Shown piece after piece: positions 3,346 to 28,190 of a stretch of DNA of 64,000 bases; the first letter of the stretch is position 1, and the number at the start of each line of letters is the position of its first letter. The DNA lies in contig NZ_JAAAPL010000008.1 of NCBI RefSeq assembly GCF_011317445.1, forward strand, positions 1 through 64,000. The letters run 5' to 3'. Under the pieces are notes generated by a model. It saw only the letters and a program-made list of their open reading frames with translations, had not been told where the DNA came from and did not search any database. A program made the position numbers and the translations under genes. The stretch comes from Chelativorans multitrophicus (GTDB lineage Bacteria > Pseudomonadota > Alphaproteobacteria > Rhizobiales > Rhizobiaceae).

Positions 3346-3659
3346 ACATCGTCGGTACAGGAAGAACCGGTCCTCGCAAAGACCTTGATGATAGCGGCAT
3401 GCATCAGCCGGCGCTGTCTGCGGCATGAATCCGCGACGGTTCGTGCTGGAAATGCGGCTCAGGCGCAAAGATCACCCCCGCTCTTATCGGCTTATTTCCC
3501 TTGTTCCAGCCCGGACCTTGTCGATCAACCCGCGAGGGGTCGGACTACGCAAGCGTGCCGCCGCTTATGGCTTCGCCAACGCGGTGATCGCGGTCCAGGC
3601 CGGAACCGACGGGCGCCTGTCGAGCGGGGAATGGTCCCCGCAGCTACGGGAGTCACACC
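3346..3659. promoter_or_regulatory. GC-rich leader with stem-loop before the 62-aa gene
   Basis: There is no gene here. A perfect 7-bp stem (GCGGGGA at 3624-3630 and TCCCCGC at 3635-3641, loop ATGG) ends 18 bases before the ATG at 3660, and a purine-rich CGGGAG serves as ribosome-binding site. Similar long structured leaders precede several other plus-strand genes up to 22 kb. Confidence 0.4.
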
Positions 3660-3848
3660 ATGTCGCAAGAACTCAGCCTCGCTCAGAACCACGCCTGGAA
3701 CCTCGCGCGCACCCTGATGACGCCGGTCATCCTCTTCAAGGTCGATGAAGACGCATACGGCGTTCTTCCTGCCGACGACCTCGATGACGACGAGGTCAAC
3801 GCCCTCTACTTTTACGACCCCTACACGGGTGGCCAGCCGGTTCATTGA
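3660..3848 (+). CDS. small conserved-looking plasmid protein (62 aa)
   Basis: This is a short acidic protein with no signal peptide or membrane segment. Residues 20-35 are hydrophobic (TPVILFKVDEDAYGVLP), and a cluster of six acidic residues follows (DDLDDDE). A Shine-Dalgarno-like GGGAG precedes the ATG and codon use matches the neighbouring plasmid genes, which supports it being real. I do not recognise a named domain. It heads the series of hypothetical plus-strand genes of the predicted leading region, so a role in plasmid establishment is possible but only inferred from position. Confidence 0.55.
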   Translation: MSQELSLAQNHAWNLARTLMTPVILFKVDEDAYGVLPADDLDDDEVNALYFYDPYTGGQPVH

Positions 3849-4026
3849 ACCGTCTCTTGCCCGGCGTGCCGCTTGCGAGCGGCAGGCCGCAAGGGAAGCT
3901 GCGCCGCGGCAGGAGCCGCGCCCTTGCCCCCTTTGCTCTTCGCGCCGGTCGCTAAGGTGTTCCGCGAAGTGTGCGGAGAAGATAAACTGAATGAAAGGTC
4001 GGCCGAAAGGCCGCTGGGAGAAAAGA

Positions 4027-4926
4027 ATGGAAAAAGCGGATATCGAAGAGCTGCGAGGCAGGGTGGGTTGTGCGGCCGTGCTGGAGACCGGAGGGTTCGC
4101 GATCGACTTGAAGGAAAGCACGCGCAAGGCGGTGAAGTATCGCCGTGGCGATGACATCATCATCGTTATCCACGATGGCAAGGGCTGGTTTGATCCGCTC
4201 TCCGACGCCAAGGGTGATGTCTATTCGCTCGTTCAGCATCTGGACGGCGGCGATTTTCTGGAAGCGTTTGTGCAAGTCGCGTCCCTGGTCGCCTTCGAGC
4301 CCCGCGAGCCAGAATGGAAACGACAGTCGCGCGAGGCGGAACCTGACCAATCCATACCGGATCGTTGGGGTGCCCGGCGCAAGCCCTGGCGCGGGTCGGC
4401 AACCTGGCGATATCTGCGCGACGACCGGCACATTCCCGAACAGGTCCTCCGGGCAGCCATCGCCCAGGACCTTCTGCGGGAAGGGCCGCGTGGGAGCATG
4501 TGGGCCGCTCATCAGGGTGCCGATGGCGTGGTCACCGGTTGGGAGGAACGTGGTCCCGAATGGCGCGGCTTTGCAACCGGCGGCAGCAAGGTCTTGTTCC
4601 GCTTCGGGTTCAAGGGCGCCGCTCGCATCTGCGTAACCGAAGCCGCCATCGATGCCATGAGCCTTGGCGCGATCGAGAAGGCCCGGCGCGATACGCTTTA
4701 TGTCAGCACTGGCGGCGGCTGGTCGCCGGCCACCGACGGCGCCATTCGCATGTTGGGGGAACGGCCCGATGTCCGCTTCGTCGCCGCGACCGATGCGAAC
4801 ACGCAGGGCGAAGCGTTCGTGGCGCGGTTGCGTGAGCTTGCCGGTGAACTCTCCTGCGACTTCGAACGTCTGAAGCCGCGTGCGGAGGACTGGAATGCGA
4901 TGCTGAAGGAGGGGGCAATCGCCTGA
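4027..4926 (+). CDS. DUF3991/Toprim domain protein
   Basis: This 299-residue soluble protein has an N-terminal zinc-ribbon-less primase-like region, a central part resembling DUF3991 (GSATWRYLRDDRHIPEQVL), and a C-terminal Toprim fold. The Toprim signature is visible as ICVTEAAIDAMSL at about residue 200 (catalytic Glu) and FVAATDANTQGE at about 252 (the acidic DxD/DxN strand). Toprim proteins of this type are common on alphaproteobacterial plasmids and are thought to act in primase or nuclease-like DNA reactions on incoming or replicating DNA. The start at 4027 is chosen over 3991 because GGGAG sits 7 bases upstream. A complementary-strand initiation role in recipients is inference. Confidence 0.75.
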   Translation: MEKADIEELRGRVGCAAVLETGGFAIDLKESTRKAVKYRRGDDIIIVIHDGKGWFDPLSDAKGDVYSLVQHLDGGDFLEAFVQVASLVAFEPREPEWKRQSREAEPDQSIPDRWGARRKPWRGSATWRYLRDDRHIPEQVLRAAIAQDLLREGPRGSMWAAHQGADGVVTGWEERGPEWRGFATGGSKVLFRFGFKGAARICVTEAAIDAMSLGAIEKARRDTLYVSTGGGWSPATDGAIRMLGERPDVRFVAATDANTQGEAFVARLRELAGELSCDFERLKPRAEDWNAMLKEGAIA

Positions 4927-4951
4927 TCGGGCAGACCGGCACCTCCAGCGC

Positions 4952-5145
4952 TCATGATGCGCGATCGAGGATCGCTGGCCCGACCTTCGCCGTCGTCATC
5001 TCGATCCGCAATGGCGCGCCAAGTCTTGACGCGGCCTCCAGCTTCGCAGCTTCCACATCGGCCGACTTAGCTCTGGCGTGTAGATCTCCAAGATGATCTC
5101 GCCGGTAGCGACGAGGATTGGGGCGAAGACGAGTGCGCGGCTCAT
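4952..5145 (-). pseudogene. small gene broken by a 2-bp duplication
   Basis: Reading the minus strand from the ATG at 5145 gives MSRALVFAPILVATGEIILE, then a frame jump. The other frame continues as AKSADVEAAKLEAASRLGAP and on to a TGA at 4952. Removing one copy of a tandem GT (GTGT at 5078-5081 on the plus strand) restores a single 63-residue frame. The repaired product would have a hydrophobic N-terminus followed by an alanine-rich helix. Both halves have normal codon bias, so this looks like a recent frameshift in a real small gene. The family is unknown. Confidence 0.45.
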
Positions 5146-5388
5146 CGGCGGATCAGCCCGGGCATGCGGCCGAATTGGGGAGGAAGAAGAAGGAAATAAA
5201 ACGAATGAAACCCGGCTGCCGCATACCCGCCAGCCGCGTCAAGTGTGAAGCTTCGCCCGGCTCCGCCGGCACTTGACCCGGCCGGACGGAGAGGCGGCCG
5301 CTGGGGAGGGGTCAGGAAGGGCTGAAGATGATGGTGATCCCCGAGGATGCGTCGCGCTCCAGTCCGACGAGGCTGAAGGAGCCCGCCA
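5146..5388. other. intergenic with purine tract before DUF1419 gene
   Basis: No gene is visible. A purine-rich tract (GGGGAGGAAGAAGAAGGAAA at about 5177-5196) and GC-rich inverted segments precede the next gene. A comparable purine tract occurs upstream of the ParB-like gene at 13231-13263. Confidence 0.35.
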
Positions 5389-5994
5389 ATGAACCCCTCT
5401 TCTCCTATCCGCAAAGTCTACCAGGGTATTGCCGACCGCCGGCAGATGTTCCGCATGTTCGATCGCCACACGCAGCGCCCCAATCGTTTCGAGGATGCCG
5501 ATGCCGGCCTCTATCGCGGGGAGTGGTTCGAGCTTACCGAGATCGAGCATGATTACATGTTCAACATCCTGCCGCCGCTCTTCATGAACGGCGAGATGTT
5601 CGCCATGCGCGAATTCCTGACGGGCTGCATCACCAGCGTCTTCTTCACCCTGAAGATCGACGACCGGATGCGGTTCTTCCACGCCTATTGCGACCTTGCC
5701 GACAAGGGTTCGCCCGCACACATGCGCGCCGCCATTGTCGAGCGGGAAAGCCGTCCAGTCCGTGCAATGACCCGCGAAGAGCGGGTCGAGCATATCTGGA
5801 GTTCAAGCCACGACGAATACCGCGGTTACGCCGATTGGCGTTTCCCGCACGCGCAGCGCGGCCGGCGGACGGTCCTGTTCTTCGGTCCCGACCGAAGCCG
5901 CGACGTCAAGCTGCTCGACGAACTCACCGAGGCGGAAATCGCAACCAAGCTGCCGGTTCATCTCCGCCACCTTCCTTTTGCCGTTGCAGCGTGA
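5389..5994 (+). CDS. DUF1419 domain protein
   Basis: This 201-residue soluble protein matches my recollection of the DUF1419 family of rhizobial plasmids in its start (IRKVYQGIADRRQMFRMFDR) and in the FNILPPLFMNGEMFAMREF and ESRPVRAMTREERVEHIW segments. No catalytic motif is apparent, and the protein ends with a conserved-looking KLPVHLRHLP. It overlaps nothing and lies 10 bases before the next gene, so the two are probably co-transcribed. Function is unknown; the family is restricted to plasmid and ICE backbones as far as I know. The start is supported by an AAGGAG sequence 10 bases upstream. Confidence 0.65.
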   Translation: MNPSSPIRKVYQGIADRRQMFRMFDRHTQRPNRFEDADAGLYRGEWFELTEIEHDYMFNILPPLFMNGEMFAMREFLTGCITSVFFTLKIDDRMRFFHAYCDLADKGSPAHMRAAIVERESRPVRAMTREERVEHIWSSSHDEYRGYADWRFPHAQRGRRTVLFFGPDRSRDVKLLDELTEAEIATKLPVHLRHLPFAVAA

Positions 5995-6004
5995 GGGGGC
6001 GGCG

Positions 6005-6403
6005 ATGTTCACATTTCCCATTGTTGCCGTTCGCAAGGTCATCGATCGCGGCACGGCGGATTCCGCCATCAATGGCGGATTTCGCAATCCCTATTATGGC
6101 ATGAAGCCCGGCGAGGGCGAGATTCCAGGGCTCTGGCTCGTTGGAGACCAGGGCGTCTACATCATGTCGGACGGAAAACTCCCTGATGGCGGGCGCCCGC
6201 TCGTCGTCTATTCCGAGGAGTGCCATCCGGTCGGCAATCCCGACTGGTTTGACTACAAGCATCGCCATTTTGGGGGCGATGACGGCATCGAATTCATCGA
6301 CGCCGGGCAGTTGCTCCCGATGTTCGATCGGAATCTGCGCTGCACGCATCTCAATGTGCAGCTCACCGAGCACCAGGTCACGCTCTCCCTGATCGTTCGC
6401 TGA
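6005..6403 (+). CDS. DUF3085-like conserved plasmid protein
   Basis: This 132-residue protein has the motif PGLWLVGDQGVYIMSDGKLP and a conserved acidic stretch (YSEECHPVGNPDWFDYKH) that I associate with DUF3085. The gene starts 10 bases after the DUF1419 stop, with a GAGGGGGCGG ribosome-binding region, so the two form one transcription unit. No enzyme signature is visible. An upstream ATG at 5978 is in frame but would overlap the previous gene, and the 6005 start is better placed. The family name is given with moderate confidence. Confidence 0.55.
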   Translation: MFTFPIVAVRKVIDRGTADSAINGGFRNPYYGMKPGEGEIPGLWLVGDQGVYIMSDGKLPDGGRPLVVYSEECHPVGNPDWFDYKHRHFGGDDGIEFIDAGQLLPMFDRNLRCTHLNVQLTEHQVTLSLIVR

Positions 6404-6487: not shown

Positions 6488-7024
6488 ATGTCGAATGACG
6501 ACCCCTTCACCATCGATCTTTTCGGAAACACGGCCCTTTCGTCCGGTCTCGGCCTCGGCGTGACGGCCTTTGCCGACAGATTTGAACCCGACGACGATCC
6601 TGATCCATCGTCCCCGGCGCCGGCGATGCCGATCGCGGCGGCCGCAGCACCCTCCAAGCCCGACCGGGAACGTGGCTCGAACTTCTATCTCGCCGACGAC
6701 CGGGGTCTGGCTCGGGGCTGGAAGGAGCGTGCCCGCGATAACGTCGCTGCGATCCGGCTCGCGGTCGAAATCGAGGCCGATGAGCGGCCGGCCACCGCCG
6801 AAGAGCAGGAGCAGCTGATCCGCTTCACCGGTTTCGGTGCGTCCGATCTTGCCAATGGTGTCTTCCGACGGCCTGGCGAGGTCGATTTCCGCAAGGGCTG
6901 GGACGAAATCGGCACCGATCTGGAGGATGCCGTCGGCGAGGGCGACTATACTTCGCTCGCCCGCTGCACCCAATACGCCCATTTTACGCCGGAGTTCATC
7001 GTCCGGGCGATCTGGTCGGGCCTC
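6488..7024 (+). pseudogene. strawberry-notch-like methylase-helicase, 5' part (interrupted)
   Basis: This is the N-terminal 179 codons of a very large plasmid protein, with a start supported by AAGGAG at 6475-6480. It holds a disordered acidic and alanine/proline segment, then RERGSNFYLADDRGLARGWK and LIRFTGFGASDLANGVF, and reads up to FTPEFIVRAIWSGL. At that point the continuous family sequence is lost because an IS110-type element is inserted. The same protein resumes at about 8594 with MGWRGGRVLEPGIGTGLFPA. The truncated product would lack both enzymatic domains. The disruption is directly visible from the two halves. Confidence 0.8.
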
Positions 7025-7026
7025 AC

Positions 7027-7339
7027 ATGGGCATTTCGATGTCAACGGTTGGCATTCGGTCACATGATGATGCTCCGTTTGTTTCAGGATCCGAGGTCCG
7101 AGCCCGAATGCATGACGCGGCCCGGTTCCGGGCACGATCAACCTCACATACGGTCGCGCAGGCGCCCTGTCGGGCTGTCGGCGGCGGTCCAGAATTCCGC
7201 TTGCGGCGGGCTGGGCTCGGGCGGATGAGACCAATCTTGAACACGGTTCTTGTCAGACCAGGGTCCGGCCCGGTTCATCCACCCGGATCCGGCGAGGCTG
7301 ATCGGGCCCCGTCGAATTTCGGAAAGGAGGGTATCAGGT
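7027..7339 (-). ncRNA. candidate bridge/seekRNA region of the IS110-type element
   Basis: This noncoding end of the insertion holds short matches to both of the element's junctions. CCTCACAT at 7142-7149 equals the left junction (7021-7028), and AATCTTGAAC at 7233-7242 equals the right junction (8585-8594). IS110-family recombinases use a structured RNA from a noncoding end, with loops that pair with target and donor DNA, and in the IS1111 group it is encoded downstream of the recombinase gene, as here. The matches could be the guide segments. RNA boundaries and folding are not established from sequence reading alone. Confidence 0.5.
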
Positions 7340-8509
7340 TCAGGCGGGTTTCATCGCGGCGCCCTCGATCACGACACCCGTGGCGACGTATTTCCAGAGT
7401 GCGACCAGCAGCTTTCGCGCCAGCGCCACGATGGCGGGTTTGCGCGAGCGGCCACCCTGATGCGCTACCCTGTCGCGGAACCACTGCGTCAACGCCGATG
7501 TCGGCTGGTGCTGCAGCCAGAGCCAGGCCAGCTGGATCATCGTGGTGCGCAACCGCGGATTGCCGGCTTTCGACACGCCTTGCTCCTGGTCGACCGCTCC
7601 GCTCTGCCACGGCGTTGGCGCCAGGCCCGCATAGGCGGCCACCTGCCGCCGGTTGTCGAAGTGACGATAGAGCCCCTCCGACCAGAGCAGCATGGCGAAT
7701 TCCGGGCCGATCCCCCTGATCTCCAGCAGCCGCGCGGCCGAGGCGGGCAGCGCGGCCTCCCGGGCCTGCGCCAGTTCGGCATCGCGCTCGGCCTCCACCG
7801 CCTTGATCTGCGCCAGCAGCAGTTCCAGCCGGTCGAGCTCGCGCAGGATCTGCACCGTCAGATGCCGCGGGAGTTCCCGACCGTCACCGGTGCGCAGCTC
7901 TTCCAGCCGCTTGCGACGATCGCGCCGCAGCGGCTCATATCCGCTCACGCCTTGCGCGAAGAGGAGCCCCTTGATGCGGTTGACATGCGCAACACGCTCG
8001 CCGGTCAGCGTCTTGCGCTCGCGCATGATCCGGCGCGCGTCCTCCTCTGCGGGCGACGGGGCCCGGACCATGGCGCAGACCCGCGGCTCTCCCCGCTTGA
8101 AGGCCAGTAGCGCCCGCACCAGGGCCTCCCCGTCGATCCTGTCGGTCTTGGCGCGCCGCCGCCGACGCGAGGTCGCGATCGAGGCCGGATCGACGACATG
8201 GCTCTCGATGCCCTCCTTCACCAGCGCGCGGTGGATCCAGAAGCCGTCGAGGCCCGCCTCCTGAATCGTCACGATCGGGAAATCCCGTCCCGTGCGACCC
8301 TTCGCTTTCGCAACAAGGAGCCGGAAACGCTCCATGAGACCCGCAAGATCGCCGCCCGGCACGCTGTGCTTCGACATCTTCTCGGCGCCGCCGGGCGACA
8401 GCGACGTGACGATCCAACGTGATCGGCTGAGTTCCAACGAAACAAAAATCGCGCCAAGATCGGTGCGGATCGCGGCTGGCGTGAAGATCGCGGGCAAAGG
8501 CTTGTTCAT
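7340..8509 (-). CDS. IS110-family transposase (DEDD recombinase)
   Basis: This 389-residue protein has an N-terminal RuvC-like DEDD domain (GAIFVSLELSRSRWIV, AKTDRIDGEALVRALL), a coiled central region, and the C-terminal Tnp20 part with LLEIRGIGPEFAMLLWSEGL and VSKAGNPRLRTTMIQLAWLW, including the family's serine region. The ATG at 8509 is preceded by AGGAG and replaces the longer upstream frame. The first acidic motif reads VSLE rather than the usual VD, a conservative change. It catalyses insertion and circularisation guided by an element-encoded RNA. The gene lies wholly within the insertion. Confidence 0.88.
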   Translation of the reverse strand: MNKPLPAIFTPAAIRTDLGAIFVSLELSRSRWIVTSLSPGGAEKMSKHSVPGGDLAGLMERFRLLVAKAKGRTGRDFPIVTIQEAGLDGFWIHRALVKEGIESHVVDPASIATSRRRRRAKTDRIDGEALVRALLAFKRGEPRVCAMVRAPSPAEEDARRIMRERKTLTGERVAHVNRIKGLLFAQGVSGYEPLRRDRRKRLEELRTGDGRELPRHLTVQILRELDRLELLLAQIKAVEAERDAELAQAREAALPASAARLLEIRGIGPEFAMLLWSEGLYRHFDNRRQVAAYAGLAPTPWQSGAVDQEQGVSKAGNPRLRTTMIQLAWLWLQHQPTSALTQWFRDRVAHQGGRSRKPAIVALARKLLVALWKYVATGVVIEGAAMKPA

Positions 8510-8593
8510 GGTTGTCTCCTGTGCAGATGGGCGTCTGAGCAACCCCACACTGCCAGAGCGCCGGTCGCGGTCCACCGCCCATGGAATCTTGAA

Positions 8594-13147: not shown

Positions 13148-13503
13148 TCGATTCACCCCCCTCAGTCCCTCCGTGAAATGGCCGAGTGGCAGATATCCGG
13201 CTCTCGCATGTCGCAGCGGGGATGTTCTTTGAGAGGAGGAGGAGGGAAAAAGAAAAAGGAGGATGAGGAATCCGCTCGCAGATCGGTCGGACCGCTGACG
13301 CTTGCGCTCAACCGCGCCGGCTCGCGATCCCGGCCGCGTCGGCCTTCGCAAGGCTGTTAGCCCCGCTTGTCCTGCCGGGCAGGGATGCTCGGCCGCAGTT
13401 GCACCGGTCCGTCCGCTCCGCGGGCCAGAGGGTGTCTTCGGGAAGAAGACGAAGAAGGACGCAGCGATTGGCTGTGTCCGGCAACCCCGTGAGGAGCATT
13501 TCC
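13148..13503. other. leader with polypurine tract before ParB-like gene
   Basis: No gene is visible in 356 bases. A 33-base uninterrupted purine tract lies at 13231-13263 (G/A only), followed by GC-rich segments that can form several short hairpins. GTGAGGAGC ahead of 13504 is the ribosome-binding site of the following gene. Confidence 0.4.
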
Positions 13504-15243
13504 ATGGAACTGAAGTTTGTCGATCCGCGCGCGCTGAAGGGAAACCCCGACAAGGCGCGTCGTTCCAAGTCCAGTCCGCAGGCTGACGCATTGCTGCTGG
13601 CGACGATCCGCGCCGTCGGTATCGTGCAGCCGCCTGTCGTTGCACCGGAATCCGATGGTGGCAACGGCTTCGTCATCGATGCCGGCCATCGCCGCGTCAA
13701 GCAGGCCATCGCCGCAGGCCTTGAAGAGATCGCCGTGCTGGTGATCGAGCGTGCCGAGGATGGCGGCGCAATGCGCTCGCTCGCAGAAACGCTGGCGCAT
13801 GAGCAGCTCAATCCCGTCGATCAGTGGCGGGCGATCGAGCGCCTGGTCGCGCTCGGCTGGACCGAGGAAGCGATCGCTGTCGCCTTGGCCTTGCCGGTTC
13901 GCCAGATCCGCAAGCTGCGTCTGCTCGCCAATGTCCTACCGGCGATGCTCGACCAGATGGCCAAAGGCGACATGCCCAATGAGAGCCAGCTGCGCACCAT
14001 CGCGTCGGCCTCGCTCGACGACCAGAAGGAGGTCTGGAAGAAGCATAAGCCCTCGAAGGCCGACCCGCAGGTCTCCTGGTGGAGTGTCGCGCAAGGCCTA
14101 CAGAAGACCCGCATGTATGCCCGCGATGCGAGCTTCGGCGAGGATCTCGCCCAGGCCTACGGCATTGCCTGGGTCGAGGACCTGTTTGCACCGGCCGATC
14201 AGGACAGCCGCTACACGACCGACGTCGAGGCATTCCTGGGCGCGCAGCAGGAGTGGATGACGCAGAACCTGCCCAAGAAGGGGGTCATCACCGAGACCAA
14301 CAACTGGGGCCAGCCGGAACTGCCGAAGAAGGCGGAGCGCGTCTATGGCAAGCCGGGCAAGTCCGACCATACGGCCCTGTACCTAGACCGCGAGGGGAAG
14401 GTTCAGACGGTGCACTTCCGCATGGCGGAGGCGAAGAAGCCGAAGAAGGGCGAACAGCCGGCGGGCGAGGGTGACGATACTGCGATCGTCGTGAAGACCC
14501 GCCCCGATGTCACCCGCAAGGGCATCGAAATGATCGGTGATCTGCGCACCGATGCTCTGCATGAAGCGCTGTCGCGGGCTCCGATCGAGGACGACACGTT
14601 GATGGCGTTGTTGGTCCTGGCGTTCGCGGGACAGAACGTGACGGTGGCGTCCGGCACGCGCGACATCTCCTACTACGGGGCGGCCGGCCTTGGCGAACAT
14701 GCCGCGCGCCTGTTCGACGAGGAGGGCAAGCTCGACTTCGACATGGAAACGCTTCGGGTTGCCGTGCGCTCGCTGCTGATCGACGTCTTGTCGTGCAGGG
14801 AAAACCGTTCGGACAGTGGCATCGTTTCCCGCGTTGCTGGCGATGTGATCGGCGCCGACGGCTTCCTGCCGAACATGGGCACGGAGGAGTTCCTCTCCTG
14901 CCTGTCGCGACCGGCGCTGGAGGCGTCGTGCGCCGACACGTCGGTTCTTCCCCGGCAGAAGATCAAGGACACCCGCGCGGCCCTGGTCGAGCACTTCAAG
15001 GAAGGTCGCTTCGTCCATCCGTCGGCGCTGTTCGGTCCCGACCAGACCAAGCTCGCGTCGTGGCTGAAGAAAAACGAGCGCGTCGAGCAGCCTGAAGATG
15101 ACGGCACGCCGGAAGGCGAGGACGAGCTCGACGGCGATGCGGTCGTCGAGCCGGCGCATGACTATGTCGATGAAGATCAGGCTGCGGCCGACCAGGACCT
15201 CACCGACGAGCAGCGCGAGGCCTACAAGGTGGCCGCCGAGTAA
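13504..15243 (+). CDS. ParB/Spo0J-type nuclease-like protein (plasmid, long form)
   Basis: This 579-residue protein has an N-terminal ParB-like domain: FVDPRALKGNPDKARR, then VIDAGHRRVKQAI at about residues 57-69 (the GxRR box), and a helix-turn-helix segment (LALPVRQIRKLRLLANVLP). The rest is a long C-terminal region found in plasmid ParB-like proteins that are not partners of a ParA; it ends in a very acidic tail. The true partition ParB here is RepB at 50.1 kb, so this protein probably serves another DNA-binding or nucleolytic role. The start at 13504 is preferred over 13399 because of the GAGGAG site and the domain start. Confidence 0.78.
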   Translation: MELKFVDPRALKGNPDKARRSKSSPQADALLLATIRAVGIVQPPVVAPESDGGNGFVIDAGHRRVKQAIAAGLEEIAVLVIERAEDGGAMRSLAETLAHEQLNPVDQWRAIERLVALGWTEEAIAVALALPVRQIRKLRLLANVLPAMLDQMAKGDMPNESQLRTIASASLDDQKEVWKKHKPSKADPQVSWWSVAQGLQKTRMYARDASFGEDLAQAYGIAWVEDLFAPADQDSRYTTDVEAFLGAQQEWMTQNLPKKGVITETNNWGQPELPKKAERVYGKPGKSDHTALYLDREGKVQTVHFRMAEAKKPKKGEQPAGEGDDTAIVVKTRPDVTRKGIEMIGDLRTDALHEALSRAPIEDDTLMALLVLAFAGQNVTVASGTRDISYYGAAGLGEHAARLFDEEGKLDFDMETLRVAVRSLLIDVLSCRENRSDSGIVSRVAGDVIGADGFLPNMGTEEFLSCLSRPALEASCADTSVLPRQKIKDTRAALVEHFKEGRFVHPSALFGPDQTKLASWLKKNERVEQPEDDGTPEGEDELDGDAVVEPAHDYVDEDQAAADQDLTDEQREAYKVAAE

Positions 15244-17013: not shown

Positions 17014-17495
17014 CGCGGATGTCGTTCTCGCCGCGGTACGACATTCATTCGTGGCGATGATGCTGGTTACAACCATGGTGACCAGATCGCTCCCGGCAAA
17101 TCGTGGATGACCTTCGGCAGCGCGGCTGGCCATGAAACACCATGGCGGTGCGGGTCGACCGGGCGCTTACCGGTCTGCATGCCGGTGTCACAGACCATCC
17201 CTCGCCGCTCTTCCCGGCGGGTTTGTTGCGGTCTGAACCAGCGGCTGGCCCCTTCAAGGCCGCTATCGCGCCGCGGAGCGGCCGGAACCCCGCCGATCTC
17301 GGCAAGGCCGGCCCGCGTCCCGCGCAGGGACCAGTGAAGAACTGGCCCCGGCTTGTCCGCAAGCCGGCCTCGCTCGCCTGGCAGGGTCCGGACCCTGAAG
17401 CGTCCAGCTTCCGCTGGTTCCTTTCGACCGCACCCGCAGGAAAGACCGGCCGAGGGCCGGATCACCTGAAGGGCATCGCTAGAAAGGTAAGCTCA
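17014..17495. promoter_or_regulatory. 482-base hairpin-dense leader
   Basis: No gene is visible, but the stretch is unusually structured. Long-range arms GCGGTC (17228-17233) plus GAACCAGCGG (17235-17244) pair with CCGCTGGTTC (17411-17420) plus GACCGC (17426-17431). Inside lie a perfect 8-bp stem (17348-17355 with 17360-17367) and a 16-bp palindrome CAGGGTCCGGACCCTG (17383-17398). It ends directly upstream of the gene at 17496. Such a fold would form readily in single-stranded DNA or in the transcript. Confidence 0.5.
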
Positions 17496-18083
17496 ATGTC
17501 CAGTTCAACCCGCTCCCCCAAGTCCAAGGCCCGCATCGTCCCGCTCCGCAAGGGCACGACCCTCGAAATGGTCCGGCTTTGCTGCCCTGACGGCAACCAG
17601 GCCGCGCTCATCTCCGAAAGTTTCGGCCTTCCGGTCCTCGACAGCGACGGCATCCGCGACTTCCACCAGCGCAGCCTGATCGAAGGCGCCGATACCCTCT
17701 CCGAGGGGCTTTCCGACAAGGCGATGCAGATTCACCTGCAGCGGATCGTCGGCTCCTATGTCGGCTCCGCCTACGGGGCAGGTCAGTTCTACTCCAAGGC
17801 CGTCACCGAGGCGAAAGACGCCACGGCCAAGCTCGCCAACGACATCCGCGACGAGGATCTGGACGGACCGGTCGGTTTCGACAGCAACGCCCAGCGCAAG
17901 CGCGAATTCGCGGCCGACATGGGGCTTCAGTCCCACGCCCTGCGCATGGCCGCCGAGGGTGCCGTCGCCGCTTACGAGCATATCGTCGGCGAGACCTGGA
18001 AGCCCTACGAGCGTCAGGTCGAAAATCCCGGCCAGACCGTCAGCCGGCAGGCGGCCGACCTCCAGATGGCGGCGCTCGGCTAG
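17496..18083 (+). CDS. conserved hypothetical plasmid protein (195 aa)
   Basis: This soluble helical protein has no recognised motif. The ATG at 17496 is chosen because the upstream part of the open frame consists of the structured leader. The protein begins basic (SSSTRSPKSKARIVPLRKGT) and continues with an alanine-rich helical domain (LQRIVGSYVGSAYGAGQFYS). It stands alone between the leader and two terminators. Being a single-gene unit with a long leader, it resembles the ArdC and DUF736 units downstream. Function is unknown. Confidence 0.55.
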   Translation: MSSSTRSPKSKARIVPLRKGTTLEMVRLCCPDGNQAALISESFGLPVLDSDGIRDFHQRSLIEGADTLSEGLSDKAMQIHLQRIVGSYVGSAYGAGQFYSKAVTEAKDATAKLANDIRDEDLDGPVGFDSNAQRKREFAADMGLQSHALRMAAEGAVAAYEHIVGETWKPYERQVENPGQTVSRQAADLQMAALG

Positions 18084-18113: not shown

Positions 18114-18132
18114 TCATCTTCCCATCGAGGCT

Positions 18133-18204: not shown

Positions 18205-18398
18205 AGGCCGCGCCAGTCGCGGCCGTCACGAATGTTGGTCCTGCTTCGGTCCTCGGCCCGCGAAACGGCTGCGCCGTCCTTCACTGACGTTGCGGCCCGC
18301 AACCGACATCTATCCTTTTTCCGATTGCTCTCGAGCGGGTTCGCGAACCTGCGGTCCTGCGCCTGCGGACCTCGTGACGGCCGCGACTGGCGCGGCCT
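18205..18398. repeat. 27-bp perfect inverted repeat flanking the ardC leader
   Basis: The arm at 18205-18231 (starting AGGCCGCGCCAGTCGCGGCC) is exactly the reverse complement of 18372-18398. The arms are separated by 140 bases, and the right arm ends 19 bases before the ardC start. In single-stranded DNA or RNA the arms would form a long stem closing a 140-base loop that has further internal pairing. Two terminators lie just upstream, so the element acts as an isolated leader for ardC. A role as a single-stranded-DNA promoter, similar in principle to Frpo elements of leading regions, is inference. Confidence 0.7.
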
Positions 18399-18417
18399 TG
18401 AATGGAGGTTTTGGAAA

Positions 18418-19344
18418 ATGAGCAGGAAAGAGAGCAAGCCCCGCGTCGATATCTACGCGAAGATCACCGACCGCATCGTCGCAGAGCTGGAAAAGGGCGT
18501 GCGTCCGTGGGTTCAGCCATGGAATGCTGGGAATACGACGGGTCGCATCACGCGGCCGCTGCGCCACAACGGACTGCCGTATCAGGGCATCAACACGCTG
18601 CTTCTCTGGTCGGAGGCGGTGGCGCGGGGGTTCGTCTCGCCCACATGGATGACGTTCAAGCAGAGCGTTGAACTGGGCGGTCATGTCCGCAAGGGCGAGA
18701 CCGGATCGATGGTCGTCTACGCCAGCCGCTTCACCCGCACAGAAACCGACGCGAAAGGCGAGGAAGTCGAACGCGGCATTCCCTTCCTCAAGGCCTATAC
18801 CGTGTTCTGCGCCGATCAGATCGACGACCTGCCGGCGCAGTACTACGGCAATCCCGCGCCGGTGGCCGATCCGGTCGAGCGCATCGAGCATGCCGATGCC
18901 TTCTTCACCAATACCGGCGCTGTCATCCGTCACAGCGGCGACAAGGCGTTTTTCAATCCGGCGCTCGACATCGTGCAGATGCCGCCCTTCGAGAGCTTTC
19001 GCGATGCTCCGAGTTATTACGCCACGCTCGGGCACGAGATGACCCATTGGGTCGGCTCGGAAAAGCGGCTTGATCGCAATCTCTCCCGCTATCACAAGGA
19101 TCGCTCCTTCAGGGCGCACGAAGAATTGGTCGCGGATTTGGGCGGCTGCTTCCTGGCGGCCGACCTCGGCATCGTCCCTGAACTGGAGCCGAGGCCGGAT
19201 CACGCGAGCTATTTGGCCAGCTGGCTTGAAATTCTCAAGAACGAGAAGCGCTTCATTTTCGCCGCGGCGGCGCATGCCCAGCGCGCCGTCAACTATCTGC
19301 ACGATCTCCAGCCGGGTGCGACGCAGGTCGCGGAGGCGGCGTGA
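18418..19344 (+). CDS. ardC: ArdC-like antirestriction protein
   Basis: This 308-residue protein has an N-terminal ssDNA-binding ArdC domain (ITDRIVAELEKGVRPWVQPW, RHNGLPYQGINTLLLW) and a C-terminal zincin-like metallopeptidase domain with ATLGHEMTHWVGSEKRLDR, whose HExxH-type motif here is HEMTH (about residue 205). A third ligand is in EELVADLGGCFLAADLG. ArdC proteins protect incoming plasmid DNA from restriction by binding ssDNA. The start at 18418 follows GGAGG and the leader. The stop overlaps the next gene's ATG (TGATG), so the two are coupled. Its position in the predicted leading region fits immediate expression after transfer. Confidence 0.9.
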   Translation: MSRKESKPRVDIYAKITDRIVAELEKGVRPWVQPWNAGNTTGRITRPLRHNGLPYQGINTLLLWSEAVARGFVSPTWMTFKQSVELGGHVRKGETGSMVVYASRFTRTETDAKGEEVERGIPFLKAYTVFCADQIDDLPAQYYGNPAPVADPVERIEHADAFFTNTGAVIRHSGDKAFFNPALDIVQMPPFESFRDAPSYYATLGHEMTHWVGSEKRLDRNLSRYHKDRSFRAHEELVADLGGCFLAADLGIVPELEPRPDHASYLASWLEILKNEKRFIFAAAAHAQRAVNYLHDLQPGATQVAEAA

Positions 19345-20285
19345 TGCTGCATTCTCCGAACATCATGGGGGAGGGCGCTGAGCCTTCCCCGCTCCGCTTG
19401 CGCGCGCTATCGCTTGGCGCTGGCGTGCAATCCACCACACTCGCTCTGATGGCGGCCCATGGCGAGATCGGCCCCATGCCCGACTGCGCTATTTTCGCTG
19501 ATACCGGCTGGGAGCCTCAGGCCGTCTACGATCATCTCGCATGGCTGATGTCGCCGAACGTCTTGCCGTTCCCGGTCCATATTGTCTCGGACGGCAATAT
19601 TCGCGAGCAGCTGATCGCGGCCGGGCAGGGCAACCGCTGGGCCTCGATCCCCGCCTTCGCCAGGACCGTCACGCCGGCAGGCGCGGTGGTCCCGGTTTTT
19701 GACGAGGACGACGAGGGCGAGCTCATCGAAGTCGCCACGCGCCAGACGACGACGGAGACCGTCTCGATCGGCATGATCCGTCGCCAGTGCACTACGGACT
19801 ATAAGATTGTTCCAATCCGTCGGAAGGTGCGTGAGCTGGCGGGCCTGACGCGCAAGCGCTCTCCCTCGTTTCCGGTCGTCGAATGCTGGATAGGCATCTC
19901 GACGGACGAGATTGTTCGGGCAAAGCCGAGTTTCGAGGCGTGGCAGGTCAAGCGCTTCCCGCTGATCGAAAAGCGCTTGAGCAGGCGGGATTGCCTCGCC
20001 TGGCTGCGTCGGCACGACTATCCCGATCCTCCGAAAAGCGCGTGCATCGGCTGCCCGTTTCACAGCAACGCCGTATGGCGATCGATGCGCGAACAGGATG
20101 CCGTTGCATGGCAGGACGCCGTCGAGGTCGACCGGGCGCTGCGGACAGGACTCAGGGGCATTCGCGGCGAGGTATACCTGCATCGATCCTGCGTGCCGCT
20201 CGAGGACGTCGATCTATCGACCGCCGCTGACCGCGGGCAGCTCGATCTCTGGCCGAATGAGTGCGAGGGCATGTGCGGTGTATGA
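19344..20285 (+). CDS. PAPS reductase-like PP-loop ATPase family protein
   Basis: This 313-residue protein is coupled to ardC by a 1-base overlap. It has a PP-loop-type N-terminus (LRALSLGAGVQSTTLALMAA), the adjacent FADTGWEPQAVYDHL signature of PAPS reductase/DndC-like folds, and a C-terminal cysteine set (SACIGCPFHSNAVW, HRSC, CEGMC) that could hold an iron-sulfur cluster. Members occur in phages and plasmids, and relatives (DndC/SspD) act in DNA phosphorothioation, but the other dnd or ssp genes are absent. A DNA-modification or anti-defence role alongside ArdC is inferred from position. A sulfur-assimilation enzyme is unlikely because the catalytic ECG-type tail is missing. Confidence 0.72.
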   Translation: MLHSPNIMGEGAEPSPLRLRALSLGAGVQSTTLALMAAHGEIGPMPDCAIFADTGWEPQAVYDHLAWLMSPNVLPFPVHIVSDGNIREQLIAAGQGNRWASIPAFARTVTPAGAVVPVFDEDDEGELIEVATRQTTTETVSIGMIRRQCTTDYKIVPIRRKVRELAGLTRKRSPSFPVVECWIGISTDEIVRAKPSFEAWQVKRFPLIEKRLSRRDCLAWLRRHDYPDPPKSACIGCPFHSNAVWRSMREQDAVAWQDAVEVDRALRTGLRGIRGEVYLHRSCVPLEDVDLSTAADRGQLDLWPNECEGMCGV

Positions 20286-20355
20286 GGCCGGCTTTGCCCC
20301 CGTAACGTTCGGGCCCATCACACGCGAGGAGCTTAACGCCCATCTCGTTCTATAG
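20257..20355 (+). CDS. possible small protein (32 aa)
   Basis: A short frame overlapping the end of the PP-loop gene encodes a 32-residue peptide whose second half, YEAGFAPVTFGPITREELNA, looks like a folded helix-strand fragment rather than random sequence. It ends 9 bases before the next start. It could be a coupled small protein or the 3' remnant of a larger gene. There is no clear ribosome-binding site of its own. Low confidence. Confidence 0.25.
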   Translation: MSARACAVYEAGFAPVTFGPITREELNAHLVL

Positions 20356-20364
20356 GGTCACAGG

Positions 20365-21177: not shown

Positions 21178-21581
21178 TGTTCGTCGACGCGTGCGCGATC
21201 ATCGCCGTGCTGTCCGATGAACCGGAAGCGGGCCGCGTCTCCGATGCCATCGCTTCCGGGAAGAATGCCTTCACCTCGCCGGTCGCCGTGCTTGAGGCGG
21301 TGCTCGGTCTTGCGCGTCCCGACAAGTTTGGTCTTTCGGTATCGGAGGTGGAGCCGATCGTTGCCGAGTTCCTCGACGAGCGCGGGATCGAGGTCCGGGA
21401 TCTGCCGCCTGCAGCCGAGACCACCAGGCTGGCACTGTCGGCGGCTCACCGGTATCGCTCCGGCCGCCATGGCCTCAATCTCGGCGATTGCCTGCATTAC
21501 GCCTGTGCGAAATATTTCGCGGTGCCCATTCTGGCGACGGCCGATGAGTTTCGGCAAACCGATCTCGCCACGGTTCCCTGA
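21177..21581 (+). CDS. vapC: VapC-family PIN-domain ribonuclease toxin
   Basis: This 134-residue PIN-domain protein has the four acidic landmarks: MFVDACAIIAVL (Asp4), a Glu in AVLEAVLGL (about residue 39), LNLGDCLHYA (Asp near 103) and ILATADEFR (Asp near 121). VapC toxins cleave tRNA or rRNA when the antitoxin is degraded, which stabilises plasmids. The ATG overlaps the vapB stop, giving tight coupling. Length is normal, and the pair is a plasmid addiction module near the predicted leading end. Confidence 0.9.
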   Translation: MFVDACAIIAVLSDEPEAGRVSDAIASGKNAFTSPVAVLEAVLGLARPDKFGLSVSEVEPIVAEFLDERGIEVRDLPPAAETTRLALSAAHRYRSGRHGLNLGDCLHYACAKYFAVPILATADEFRQTDLATVP

Positions 21582-22262
21582 CGGGCGCCAGGTCGGCCCC
21601 GGGACCCGGAGGCGCCGCGCCTTCCCGCTGTAGTTTGTCAGGTCCGCGATCGGAACCCCGCCTGTACGGTCGTCCCTGGCGGTTAGCCATTCAGCTTGAA
21701 ACGAGAGCCAGGATAGGCAAATTGCCGGTCGCCTCTCCCGATAGCGCGCCATAGAAGCAGCGTCGGTTCAATGCATGGGTCAGCCTGGCGCGTAGCGTCG
21801 GGCGCTTGTCTCGCTGATCTCCCGGTGCGTCACCGTTCGAAGCCGGTGCGAGACAATGGGGCAACGGTCCCTGTCTTTGGGATCTGAGGCGCTGCGTGGC
21901 TTGACTGCGACCGCGATGGGCTCTCGACCGAACAGCCTCTGGCTCGTGGTATGACGCCGTCGACGGAAACGCCGGTCTTCATTCCGGTTTCCACAAAGGC
22001 CACGTCCATCTGCGTCCTCGATGTGACTGGTCTGACCGAAGGCCGATCCCGCTATTGCGGGCTCTCGATCTTGTCCCGGCAACGGCCTTCACGACTTTCT
22101 TCCCCTGACGGCTGCGCCGCCATTCCTCGCGGACCAAGAAAGCCGCTCCCGGCCGCCTTCCACTTTGTTCCAGCCCTGCGGGTGCCAGTCGATCGCCTCC
22201 GGTCCACCGACCGTCATCGAGGTCGCGATGGGCGCGGCCCGAGCAACAAAGGAATGAGACAC
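21582..22262. promoter_or_regulatory. 681-base structured leader before DUF736 gene
   Basis: No convincing gene lies here; minus-strand frames run into vapC as shadows. A perfect 9-bp inverted pair TTGTCTCGC (21806-21814)/GCGAGACAA (21848-21856) closes a stem that contains further CCGG pairing, and several shorter hairpins follow. This is the longest of the leader-like gaps in this part of the window and ends at AAAGGAATGAGACACATGG. Confidence 0.45.
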
Positions 22263-22571
22263 ATGGCTACCATCGGCACCTTCGCTTCCACGGGCAACGG
22301 CTTCAGCGGCTCGATCAAGACCCTCAACCTCAACGTCAAGGCCAAGCTGGTCCGCATCGAAAACCCCTCCGACAAGGGACCGCACTTCCGCATCTTCTCC
22401 GGCAATGTCGAACTCGGCGCCGCCTGGCAGAAGGTCTCCGCAGAGGGCCGCGACTACCTCTCGGTAAAGCTGGACGACCCGAGCTTCCCCGCTCCGATCT
22501 ACGCCACCCTGATCGAGGTGGAAGGCGAGGAAGGCCTGCAGCTGATCTGGTCCCGCCCGAACCGGGACTGA
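22263..22571 (+). CDS. DUF736 family protein
   Basis: This 102-residue protein begins [20 protein letters not shown] and has [20 protein letters not shown] and [19 protein letters not shown]. This is a clear DUF736 protein, abundant on rhizobial plasmids. It is predicted to be a small beta-rich protein without known enzymatic residues. GGAATGAG lies before the ATG, the gene stands alone after a very long leader, and a strong hairpin follows. Function is unknown. Its constant association with conjugative plasmids and placement in the predicted leading region suggest a role early in the recipient (inference). Confidence 0.85.
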
Positions 22572-22581
22572 GCATCCCGCC

Positions 22582-22613
22582 AGAGGACCCCGCCGCACAG
22601 GCGGGGTTCCTCT
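22582..22613 (+). terminator. hairpin after DUF736 gene
   Basis: AGAGGACCCCGCC (22582-22594) pairs with GGCGGGGTTCCTCT (22600-22613) with one bulge and a 5-base loop, 10 bases after the stop codon. It has no strong T-run, so it may act as a terminator or as an RNA-stability hairpin. Confidence 0.6.
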
Positions 22614-22871
22614 CAGCTATAGAGAAGCCGGAACCAGGCATCGAGCCTGGCCCCGGCTTTTTGCTGCCATCCGGTTGGGGAAGGTCTGCTCAGATCGTCC
22701 GAGGATGCCATGGCGTTCCGAAGGCCCCAAGGACTTCGTGGTACCCCCAAAATGCTGACGCATTTCGGCTCCCCCACTCGCCGGCTCCGCCGGTCGCGTG
22801 CCGCGCTCCTTGACCCCTCCGGCCCACCATGACCGCCGGTGTCATCTTTCACCAACATCAAGGAGATGAAC

Positions 22872-23036
22872 ATGTCGATCGATCAACACATCGAGGAGCT
22901 TCGGGCCGAGGCCAGAAATGCGATCTGCCGGGACGAGCGTCGCTGGATCGAAGAGGAGCTTGCCAGGGCGCTGGCCGAGCGTGAAGCCATCTGGGCCGAG
23001 CAGGAGGCGCTGATGAGCGCCGAGCCTCCTTTCTAG
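22872..23036 (+). CDS. small helical protein (54 aa)
   Basis: AAGGAG (22860-22865) lies 6 bases before the ATG at 22872. The 54 residues form two charged helices (SIDQHIEELRAEARNAICRD, EELARALAEREAIWAEQ) with a short tail. An in-frame ATG at 22866 is too close to the ribosome-binding site. There is no recognised family. Codon use and the ribosome site argue it is real. Its neighbours are the DUF736 unit upstream and a convergent WGR gene downstream. Confidence 0.55.
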   Translation: MSIDQHIEELRAEARNAICRDERRWIEEELARALAEREAIWAEQEALMSAEPPF

Positions 23037-23057
23037 GGGGCTTTCGCCCTGACACCT

Positions 23058-23092
23058 AACCTCATAAGCCGGATCGACCGGCCTATGAGGTT
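23058..23092. terminator. bidirectional hairpin between convergent genes
   Basis: AACCTCATA (23058-23066) plus GCCGG pairs with CCGGC plus TATGAGGTT (23084-23092). The hairpin lies between the 54-aa gene and the convergent WGR gene, overlapping the latter's stop codon, and can serve both directions. Confidence 0.7.
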
Positions 23093-23367
23093 CGCCGAGC
23101 CCGGCGATCATGCGGCCGGCGGCCCGTTCGTGGACCGTAACCGCGCGTGCGTTTGCTGCGCAGCAGCTCCAGAAAGAGCTGCACCGCGTCTTCCTCTTTG
23201 TTGAAATGATGTTGCATGATCTGCCCACGCGCGCCGATGCGTCCCCATCTGCGGGTCAGGCAGACGTCTCCGAACAGCGTCGCCTCGATCGACATGGCAT
23301 AGAACCGGGCCATGTTCTTCGTGGGATCCATCCGCTCGACGTAAAGCTGGTAGGGTTGCGCGATCAT
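23083..23367 (-). CDS. WGR domain protein
   Basis: This 94-residue protein is essentially one WGR domain: YVERMDPTKNMARFYAMSIE, LFGDVCLTRRWGRIGARGQI, and EDAVQLFLELLRSKRTRGY. WGR domains bind nucleic acid ends and nicks and are named for the Trp-Gly-Arg motif visible here. Stand-alone versions are common on rhizobial plasmids. The ATG at 23367 is preferred; the frame is open to 23403 but with a non-ATG start. The gene shares its upstream region with an inverted repeat at 23412-23439 and faces the DUF736 unit. Confidence 0.82.
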   Translation of the reverse strand: MIAQPYQLYVERMDPTKNMARFYAMSIEATLFGDVCLTRRWGRIGARGQIMQHHFNKEEDAVQLFLELLRSKRTRGYGPRTGRRPHDRRARRTS

Positions 23368-27442: not shown

Positions 27443-27465
27443 GACCGGCTTCCTCTTGCTGGCGC

Positions 27466-27729
27466 TTAGTCGCCGTTTGCCTTCTCGGAATCGTCGGAGA
27501 CGGGCGATCCCGCATCCGCCGCTTCGGCGTCCTTCATGCGGTCGCGTTGGAACGCCATGCCGCCTTTTGCTTTCAGCCGATGATGCTCGGGCGATCCGAC
27601 GCGTACGGTCGCGGCTTCCAACAGGACACCGAGCAGGAACGCCCGGTCGGCCTGTCGCAGCCCGGCCTTCACCACCAATCCGCCGAGCGTGATCTTCTCG
27701 CGCGCGTCTTTCTTGCGATCCTCTGTCAT
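27466..27729 (-). CDS. traD: conjugal transfer protein TraD (Ti type)
   Basis: This is an 87-residue protein with DAREKITLGGLVVKAGLRQA and DRAFLLGVLLEAA, diagnostic for the small TraD of Ti-type systems (unrelated to the F-plasmid TraD ATPase). It lies between traG and traC as expected. The ATG at 27729 is chosen; the frame runs open to 27939, so a slightly longer form is possible. TraD is an accessory protein of DNA processing with no clear enzymatic motif. The acidic C-terminal tail (AEAADAGSPVSDDSEK) is variable in the family. Confidence 0.82.
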   Translation of the reverse strand: MTEDRKKDAREKITLGGLVVKAGLRQADRAFLLGVLLEAATVRVGSPEHHRLKAKGGMAFQRDRMKDAEAADAGSPVSDDSEKANGD

Positions 27730-27778
27730 CGTCTGCCGCCGCTTTCGTTCCAGGGCCACAATCCGCCGATCGAGGCGC

Positions 27779-28003
27779 TTAAGCAGATGCGCCTGAAGGC
27801 CCCTTGGCGCTTTTGCGAAATCGCGCGGCGATCTCCTCGAAGACAGCGTCGAGCTCATTGTCGGGAATATCCATCTCGGCCAGTCCTGCCTTGGCCGCCG
27901 CGCGCGCGAAGCGCTCATTGGCCTTGGCGAGGATTCCACGGCGTTTTTCGCGTAGTTTATCTATCTGGGCGTCAATCTCTGAAATCGATGATTTAGCGCG
28001 CAT
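27779..28003 (-). CDS. traC: conjugal transfer protein TraC (Ti type)
   Basis: This 74-residue helical protein has the TraC signature ISEIDAQIDKLREKRRGIL followed by an alanine-rich helix and ELDAVFEEIAARF. It is the first gene of the traC-traD-traG unit and starts about 220 bases from traA on the opposite strand, with oriT between. TraC is a relaxosome accessory protein thought to help TraA at oriT. It is somewhat shorter than Ti-plasmid TraC at the C-terminus. Regulation is presumably shared with traA through the oriT-proximal divergent promoters. Confidence 0.82.
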   Translation of the reverse strand: MRAKSSISEIDAQIDKLREKRRGILAKANERFARAAAKAGLAEMDIPDNELDAVFEEIAARFRKSAKGPSGASA

Positions 28004-28084
28004 TTTCTACCTTATCCTTTCCGGAAGCCTTCCTTTGCACGGCGATTATACCGTGTAGAAACGCATAGTAAAAGATGCTAGTTT

Positions 28085-28190
28085 GCGGCGAGCCGTGAGG
28101 CTCACTTTTGGTCTGCGCCCGCAAGGGCGCATCCCGAGAAGCGGCATCGGTCCTGCGGCCCGATCTGTTCGAGGGCGCAATATACGTGGC
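28085..28190. other. predicted origin of transfer (oriT), Q-type nic
   Basis: The divergent gap between traC and traA holds AGGGCGCAATATACGT at 28172-28187. Its reverse complement reads ACGTATATTGCGCCCT, matching the Q-type (RSF1010/Ti) nic consensus TATTGCG/CCCT on the minus strand. Upstream lie hairpins GAGCC-GTGA-GGCTC (near 28090) and TGCGCCC-GCAA-GGGCGCA (28114-28131). Position and sequence both match Ti-plasmid oriT organisation. If cut as in RSF1010, the strand entering first carries the 28-to-3 kb side. Confidence 0.75.

What the first reader, a model, noticed from the sequence alone, without database searches (positions are those of the whole stretch)
3346..28190. Leading region with anti-defence genes and hairpin-rich leaders next to a Q-type oriT
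The predicted nic (28172-28187, minus strand) would make the 28-to-3 kb side enter the recipient first. That side carries ArdC, VapBC, a Mom-like and a PAPS-reductase-like protein, Toprim and ParB-like proteins. From 3.6 to 23 kb all genes except the broken one at 4952-5145 and the IS transposase are plus-strand, so the incoming minus strand is their template. Many have 300-680 base gaps full of stems (17014-17495, 18133-18417, 21582-22262, 13148-13503). This fits expression from folded single-stranded DNA, known for F-like leading regions but not, as far as I know, described for Ti-type rhizobial plasmids.
Basis: partly seen in the sequence, partly recalled or inferred. Interest (0 to 1): 0.72.

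Follow-up and report, generated by a model that had tools for sequence, protein, structure and literature searches.

The report
Folded leaders on incoming plasmid strand
Rhizobial plasmids carry, in front of several of the genes that enter a new cell first, conserved folded stretches of DNA, at least one and probably two of which are built to fold on the strand that is transferred, which suggests a way to switch on protective genes before the plasmid becomes double-stranded.

Summary
The finding holds up in part and can be sharpened. A nic-like site lies on the minus strand in 27 of 27 loci with TraA, the window included, so the 28-to-3 kb side would lead and its plus-strand genes would have the transferred strand (T-strand) as template. 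The leaders of ParB, a 195-aa protein (P195), ArdC, DUF736 and a 54-aa protein are conserved folds: in 20 to 75 non-redundant sequences each, the number of base pairs changed on both sides exceeds all 200 shuffles, which it does in none of six coding controls. The P195 leader is more conserved than four-fold sites of its gene in 74 of 77 loci. Polarity is the T-strand's for P195 (clear) and DUF736 (good), unresolved for the other three. F-plasmid Frpo, a proven single-strand promoter, gives the same kind of signature here. The leaders have no sequence similarity to Frpo and no sigma70 boxes that I could recognise: they may work like Frpo but are not members. Single-strand promoter function is inferred; minus-strand RNAs are the main rival. 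The DUF736 leader occurs in 76 of 397 Hyphomicrobiales genomes.

The parts
28172..28187 (-). nic-like site CGTATATTGCGCCCTC; the transferred strand would start at CCCT and run toward lower coordinates
   Evidence: site of this kind on the minus strand in 27 of 27 loci upstream of TraA. Likeness to RSF1010/pTi nic and the cut position are recalled, from no call
28225..32898 (+). traA relaxase (MobA/MobL, helicase and BID domains)
   Evidence: Pfam
22600..22871 (-). leader E, upstream of the 54-aa gene; conserved fold, polarity not resolved
   Evidence: 35 pairs changed on both sides, shuffle maximum 24; wobble 24:20, p 0.65
22872..23036 (+). 54-aa conserved protein, unknown
   Evidence: plus strand in 22 of 22 loci; no Pfam match
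21997..22243 (-). approximate core of leader D, upstream of DUF736; T-strand polarity well supported by wobble
   Evidence: 45 pairs changed on both sides, shuffle maximum 30; wobble 39:17, p 0.0046; folding-energy difference not beyond shuffles
22263..22571 (+). DUF736 protein
   Evidence: PF05284
20932..21581 (+). VapB (end of ORF 20365-21177, start approximate) and VapC
   Evidence: PSK_trans_fac and PIN
19341..20285 (+). PAPS-reductase-like protein
   Evidence: PHROG 424
18205..18398 (-). core of leader C, upstream of ardC: perfect 27-bp terminal stem, multi-branched; polarity not resolved
   Evidence: 26 pairs changed on both sides, shuffle maximum 17
18418..19344 (+). ardC antirestriction gene
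   Evidence: ArdcN and MPTase-PolyVal
17199..17465 (-). approximate core of leader B, upstream of the 195-aa gene: about 270-nt branched hairpin; clear T-strand polarity
   Evidence: 30 of 65 pairs with compensatory changes in 45 sequences; wobble 49:15; energy difference 4.7 sd
17496..18083 (+). 195-aa conserved all-helical protein, no known relative
   Evidence: no Pfam match
13270..13424 (-). approximate core of leader A, upstream of the ParB-like gene; conserved fold, polarity not resolved
   Evidence: 24 pairs changed on both sides, shuffle maximum 19
13504..15243 (+). ParB_N-domain protein
   Evidence: PF02195
6488..13147 (+). methylase/helicase gene, interrupted by an IS110 element at 7340-8689
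   Evidence: (best Pfam hits lie just below the curated cut-offs); single long gene in relatives
5389..6403 (+). DUF1419 and DUF3085 genes
3991..4926 (+). DUF3991/Toprim protein

Best explanation
This is the conserved leading region of Ti-type and related rhizobial conjugative plasmids, with folded elements placed directly upstream of several of its genes. Shown by computation: five leaders are selected to keep a large branched hairpin; in one (P195) clearly and in a second (DUF736) with good support the fold belongs to the minus strand, which is the strand predicted to be transferred; gene direction toward oriT is the same next to TraA- and MOBP-type relaxases. Inferred: when the T-strand enters a recipient, each leader folds into a partly double-stranded hairpin just before the ribosome-binding site; RNA polymerase (or a primase making a primer that also serves as message) starts there on the T-strand template, so that ArdC, VapBC, the ParB-like, P195 and DUF736 proteins are made before the second strand. 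Once the plasmid is double-stranded the hairpin is lost and expression falls.
For: Geometry: nic-like site on the minus strand in 27 of 27 loci. Among 90 loci with P195 (set as plus), all hits found are on one strand: TraA plus 27 of 27, TraG minus 40 of 40; with correct reading frames ArdC plus 81 of 81, ParB 76 of 76, DUF736 69 of 69, 54-aa gene 22 of 22. A different (MOBP) relaxase is plus in 4 of 4 loci. Selection on folding: (pairs changed on both sides beyond all 200 shuffles in five of five leaders, in zero of six coding controls); leader B also (30 of 65 pairs against 21.2 shuffled; 257 double-changed cells against 68.9). Leader B more conserved than four-fold sites in 74 of 77. Polarity: pairs with more wobble on the T-strand than on plus: A 33:20, B 49:15, C 23:19, D 39:17, E 24:20. 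Energy difference between strands, corrected by shuffles: B 4.7 sd, against at most 2.0 in 28 coding segments of the window. Calibration: RNase P gives 45:10 for its own strand; Frpo, a known single-strand promoter, gives 21:9 for the T-strand (p 0.04) and a better T-strand fold. Few promoter-like sites.
Against: No promoter activity was or could be measured. No -10/-35 boxes were recognised in the G+C-rich stems, whereas Frpo is reported to rebuild them (PMC9849209, passages). Polarity is unresolved for C (p 0.64) and E (0.65); for A (p 0.098) the unpaired columns show a transition bias as large (7.0 against 3.7 per column). For D the shuffle-corrected energy difference is only 1.0 sd (1.8 with DNA parameters). 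A strict fold without G-U gave only 41:26 pairs over seven leaders, one leader below 0.05. Toprim and DUF1419 leaders prefer the plus strand with RNA parameters. Coding controls are not neutral: 3 of 7 give wobble p below 0.05 toward plus, 4 of 7 fold better on the T-strand by consensus energy, and majority-wobble pairs are commoner on the T-strand in 4 of 7; double-changed cells exceed shuffles in four of six. Polarity does not separate DNA of this strand from RNA of the same sequence. On the minus strand around the ParB start, promoter-like scores are somewhat above shuffled (6.61 against 6.15).
Confidence: 0.46

Rival explanations
1. The leaders are genes of structured minus-strand RNAs, divergent from each leading-region gene, acting as antisense or trans-acting regulators; the fold is that of the RNA.
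For: Wobble intermediates at GC/AT-switching pairs of leaders B and D are as RNA-like as in RNase P (GT:AC 140:27 and 127:4 against 103:27); several pairs of B are G.T in most sequences. Promoter-like scores on the minus strand at ParB lie above shuffled. Antisense RNAs are common on the C58 plasmids (PMC3738593, abstract and passages: 43 ncRNA candidates on pAt; coordinate lists not seen).
Against: Frpo, reported to act as DNA, shows the same wobble bias (50:14). Five different large RNAs each exactly upstream of a leading gene would be odd. Best minus-strand promoter positions are scattered and mostly near the shuffled score level. Orientation relative to the relaxase would not need to be kept.
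Confidence: 0.25
2. The hairpins are single-strand initiation sites: primase or primosome loading sites for making the second strand in the recipient, with gene expression a side effect.
For: T-strand polarity; a Toprim/DUF3991 (primase-like) protein belongs to the module (13 of 13 hits on the same strand).
Against: Priming would not need a site in front of several genes, each just before the start codon.
Confidence: 0.13
3. The leaders are 5' untranslated regions of the plus-strand messages, folding as mRNA regulators.
For: They sit directly upstream of ribosome-binding sites; leader C folds equally well on both strands; A and E are not resolved.
Against: Polarity of B, and probably D, is the opposite strand; no Rfam family matches.
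Confidence: 0.11
4. The leaders are double-stranded protein-binding or cruciform elements, for example sites for the module's ParB-like protein, and the folding is incidental.
For: Near-invariant blocks; ParB_N protein in the module.
Against: Compensatory changes keep pairing rather than sequence; polarity would not be expected.
Confidence: 0.05

Closest known systems
Frpo1/Frpo2 single-strand promoters of the F plasmid
   Same: Long T-strand hairpin of about 300 nt, about 45 nt before the ssb start; T-strand is the template; T-strand folds better than its complement and carries more wobble pairs; neighbours include ParB-like, antirestriction and methylase genes
   Different: No sequence similarity; no -10/-35 boxes recognised; G+C-rich; a distinct element before each gene, whereas Frpo copies are 84-97% identical to F Frpo2; different relaxase and host class
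Anti-defence islands in leading regions (Samuel et al. 2024, PMC11541004, passages only)
   Same: Antirestriction and toxin-antitoxin genes in the leading region, oriented with the T-strand as template; that study includes MOBQ elements
   Different: Term counts in its main text are zero for rhizob, Agrobacter, Alphaproteo, DUF and ArdC; its promoter search started from known Frpo/ssi sequences and -35/-10 consensus
ssi / primase-recognised hairpins (recalled)
   Same: Hairpins that act on single-stranded plasmid DNA
   Different: Usually short and few; not placed before several genes

Membership tests
Frpo/ssi single-strand promoters | T-strand folds into a long stable stem-loop | tested here: met
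   T-strand rather than complement clear for B, good for D, unresolved for A, C, E
Frpo/ssi single-strand promoters | Located in the leading region, upstream of genes templated by the T-strand | tested here: met
   given the recalled nic polarity
Frpo/ssi single-strand promoters | Sequence similarity to known Frpo | tested here: not met
   best E 0.034 over 18 nt
Frpo/ssi single-strand promoters | Hairpin rebuilds -10 and -35 boxes | tested here: inconclusive
   mean scores of E. coli-type hexamer pairs at most 0.12 above shuffled, except on the minus strand at ParB (0.46 above); an alphaproteobacterial consensus or mismatched hairpin boxes were not tested
Frpo/ssi single-strand promoters | Transcription from the single-stranded form | not testable with these tools
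   needs in vitro transcription or mating assays
ArdC antirestriction proteins | ArdcN domain plus zincin-like metallopeptidase domain | tested here: met
Ti-type (MOBQ) oriT | TGCGCCCT nic core between divergent traC and traA | tested here: met
   nicking itself not testable
Known structured RNA families (Rfam 15) | Match at gathering score, or a low E-value | tested here: not met
   whole window, gathering; 12900-23200, best E 0.14, none in a leader core

The most novel reading that the evidence does not exclude
A new class of single-strand promoters, unrelated in sequence to Frpo and without sigma70 boxes, spread over rhizobial plasmids and integrative elements; several leading-region genes each have their own hairpin, read on incoming DNA either by the alphaproteobacterial RNA polymerase in an unusual way or by a plasmid primase.
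Probability: 0.33. Interest if true: 0.88.

Novelty: new variant of a known kind. Interest (0 to 1): 0.72.

Why it matters
Early expression from incoming single-stranded DNA has been shown for the F plasmid. If these leaders do the same in a different bacterial class with different sequences, the mechanism has either arisen twice or diverged beyond recognition, and it becomes testable in well-known plasmids such as pAtC58. It could help explain how At, Ti and symbiosis plasmids survive restriction in new hosts, and it suggests a way of finding such elements without sequence similarity: compensatory pairing plus wobble polarity relative to nic.

Tried and rejected
Rejected or inconclusive: (1) Coding extensions: the leader frames are open in the window, but relatives differ by non-multiples of three. 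(2) Known RNA family: none. (3) Shared 12-mers (up to one mismatch) among the five leader consensuses: none, though C and D share short blocks in a cross-BLAST. (4) A strict no-G-U fold as polarity test: weak result, reported above. (5) First RNase P control was invalid because the loci lay on mixed strands; the corrected one is (13 of 30 reversed; four loci near contig ends are cut off-register; 26 sequences counted). (6) Structure of P195 (45 of the 90 sequences aligned): all-helical model, mean pLDDT 81, no fold match at E 0.001. (8) Aminobacter p1 has two further DUF736 genes in opposite orientation on the lagging side, one whole (70% identical) and one with stops, with only fragments of the leader D core: fits loss of the leader in the wrong orientation, but it is one case. 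(9) In one search the ArdC and DUF736 queries were one base out of frame; strands were recounted with correct frames, and all leader extractions used the correct frames.

Counting notes: non-redundant means at most 97% identity (98.5% for Frpo, giving 16; 97% gives 10, where Frpo covariation is only marginal, 7 pairs with a shuffle maximum of 7). Sequences with more than 15% or 20% (later calls; 25% for Frpo) gaps were dropped, which is why n for ArdC is 46 or 60. Alignment A4 holds 45 of the P195 leaders (83 distinct). The 80 loci are the best 80 of 436.
Full report
Where it is. The window is 64 kb of a 71.8-kb contig of a 4.8-Mb genome. Its gene order, Toprim - DUF1419 - DUF3085 - methylase/helicase - ParB-like - small genes - P195 - ArdC - (PAPS-reductase-like) - (VapBC) - DUF736 - 54-aa gene - traG/D/C on the other strand - oriT - traA, largely recurs in plasmids of Aminobacter, Agrobacterium (At and Ti), Shinella, Ancylobacter and Rhizobium, and partly, with another relaxase, in Mesorhizobium pMLa and Bradyrhizobium p195_2. 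A search of genome contigs with P195 found 436 relatives, of which the best 80 were kept with up to 10 kb on each side.

Direction of transfer. The nic-like sequence lies on the minus strand in 27 of 27 loci that hold the start of TraA, window included. That the strand starting at CCCT leads is recalled from RSF1010/pTi work and was not tested. It makes the minus strand the T-strand and the plus-strand genes its transcripts. Orientation is constant among the hits: TraA plus 27 of 27, TraG minus 40 of 40; ArdC plus 81 of 81, ParB 76 of 76, DUF736 69 of 69, DUF1419 26 of 26, 54-aa gene 22 of 22, Toprim 13 of 13, with P195 plus by definition in 90. Four loci with a different, MOBP relaxase have it on the same strand. 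In 397 Hyphomicrobiales genomes, own included, the DUF736 leader is found in 76. Reading together, all 12 leader-TraA pairs that share a contig and lie within 100 kb are on one strand; in three further genomes both lie on chromosome-sized contigs more than 300 kb apart and were not counted, and in two of these some pairs differ in strand. These counts follow partly from shared ancestry.

The leaders are conserved and noncoding. Queries with a leader plus 23 to 35 coding bases match 73 (ardC), 450 (P195), 674 (DUF736) and 405 (ParB) plasmid records. Over 70 to 83 sequences, long blocks are nearly invariant. The P195 leader is on average 74% identical to the window against 63% at four-fold sites of the gene it precedes, and higher in 74 of 77 loci.

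They fold, and evolution keeps the fold. For T-strand alignments, pairs changed on both sides number 24 (ParB; shuffle maximum 19), 49 (P195; 38), 26 (ArdC; 17), 45 (DUF736; 30) and 35 (54-aa gene; 24); RNase P in the same pipeline gives 70 (55). Six coding segments of the same loci give 12 to 28, never above the shuffle maximum. Their double-changed cells do exceed it in four of six, being 1.2 to 2.2 times the shuffled mean, against 2.9 to 3.8 times in the leaders; related sequences inflate this measure. With the dedicated tool, 65 pairs of leader B in 45 sequences: 96.0% of cells paired against 86.2% shuffled, 257 double-changed cells against 68.9, and 34-49% paired when slid by one to three columns.

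Which strand folds. A G.T pair on one strand is A.C on the other, so wobble tolerance shows the strand under selection. Over pairs that are Watson-Crick in most sequences, T-strand wobble wins in 49 pairs and loses in 15 for P195 (p 2e-5), 39:17 for DUF736 (p 0.005), 33:20 for ParB (p 0.10), 24:20 for the 54-aa gene and 23:19 for ArdC. Pairs within a helix are not independent, so these p values are optimistic. At unpaired columns (per column) G-to-A against C-to-T transitions are 5.9 to 4.7 for P195 and 4.4 to 4.4 for DUF736, so mutation bias does not explain these two; for ParB they are 7.0 to 3.7, which could explain its excess. Six T-strand pairs of leader B are wobble in most sequences and none on plus, but coding controls show up to nine against three, so this count alone proves little. 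Folding energy of the window copy favours the T-strand for B by 33 kcal/mol, 4.6 sd beyond shuffles (4.1 with DNA parameters); D gives 1.0 and 1.8, A 0.3 and 2.0, C 0.1 and 1.0, E 1.0 and -0.9. In a repeat with 28 coding segments of the window, those range from -1.4 to 2.0, and only B (4.7) lies outside. Controls for the wobble test: RNase P 45:10 for its own strand; the oriT region 22:22; of seven coding segments three lean significantly to plus, four are neutral, and four fold better on the T-strand by consensus energy. A strict fold without G-U gave a weak 41:26, and Toprim and DUF1419 leaders prefer plus with RNA parameters. So polarity is clear for B, good for D, open for A, C and E.

Comparison with Frpo. 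Frpo1 and Frpo2 of F are reported as single-strand promoters needed for early expression of leading genes (PMC9849209, passages). From F and ten related plasmids I took 22 copies. Their T-strand folds better than the complement (consensus of 16: -278.0 against -255.6; the two F copies 1.6 to 3.4 sd beyond shuffles), wobble pairs lie mostly on the T-strand (50 cells against 14; 21:9 pairs, p 0.04), and the hairpin ends about 45 nt before the ssb start. So an element known to act as DNA shows the wobble bias that one might have taken as proof of RNA. The rhizobial leaders share this architecture, not the sequence. Mean scores of E. coli-type -35/-10 pairs are at most 0.12 above shuffled sequence in nine of ten leader-strand tests; the exception is the minus strand around the ParB start (6.61 against 6.15), with scattered positions (a scan of the window finds one promoter-like site where 1.4 are expected). 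An alphaproteobacterial consensus was not tested.

Mechanism. Best reading: single-strand promoters or promoter-like priming sites on the incoming strand, 0.46. Main rival: structured minus-strand RNAs, 0.25.

Novelty. Samuel et al. (PMC11541004; passages) describe anti-defence islands and Frpo-like promoters widely, MOBQ included, but the terms rhizob, Agrobacter, Alphaproteo and ArdC do not occur in its main text. Searches listed no paper that, by title or abstract, describes folded leaders or single-strand promoters of Ti-type plasmids; three of the lists were cut (20 of 49, 15 of 580, 15 of 21). I file it as a new variant of a known kind, with the question of promoter boxes open.

Noticed in passing
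L151:4187-17713 (own genome, contig C1, 1,694,186-1,707,712): A chromosomal element with a DUF3363 (RlxS-like) relaxase, a replication initiator, a DUF736 gene with a 72% identical piece of leader D, and a Toprim_3 protein, all on one strand: the leader occurs outside Ti-type plasmids too.
   Followed up: partly
window 7340-8689: An IS110-family element interrupts the large methylase/helicase gene (parts at 6488-7228 and from 8597), which is one long gene in relatives; the gene recalls phage P1 DarB (recalled, not tested).
   Followed up: no
window 20365-21177: A Mom-like-looking stretch (no database match) runs in frame into VapB, giving one 270-aa ORF; it may be a fusion or two genes.
   Followed up: partly
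window 28225-32898: TraA carries two stretches matching the BID domain of Bartonella effectors (PF17841, E 5e-21), presumably a type IV secretion signal.
   Followed up: no
L004:37149-40061 (Aminobacter niigataensis p1): On the lagging side, two further DUF736 genes in opposite orientation (one whole, one with stops) with only fragments of leader D; there the T-strand would not be the template.
   Followed up: partly
window 17496-18083: The 195-aa protein behind the best leader has 436 relatives in genome contigs, is predicted all-helical, and has no Pfam, PHROG or PDB-fold match.
   Followed up: yes
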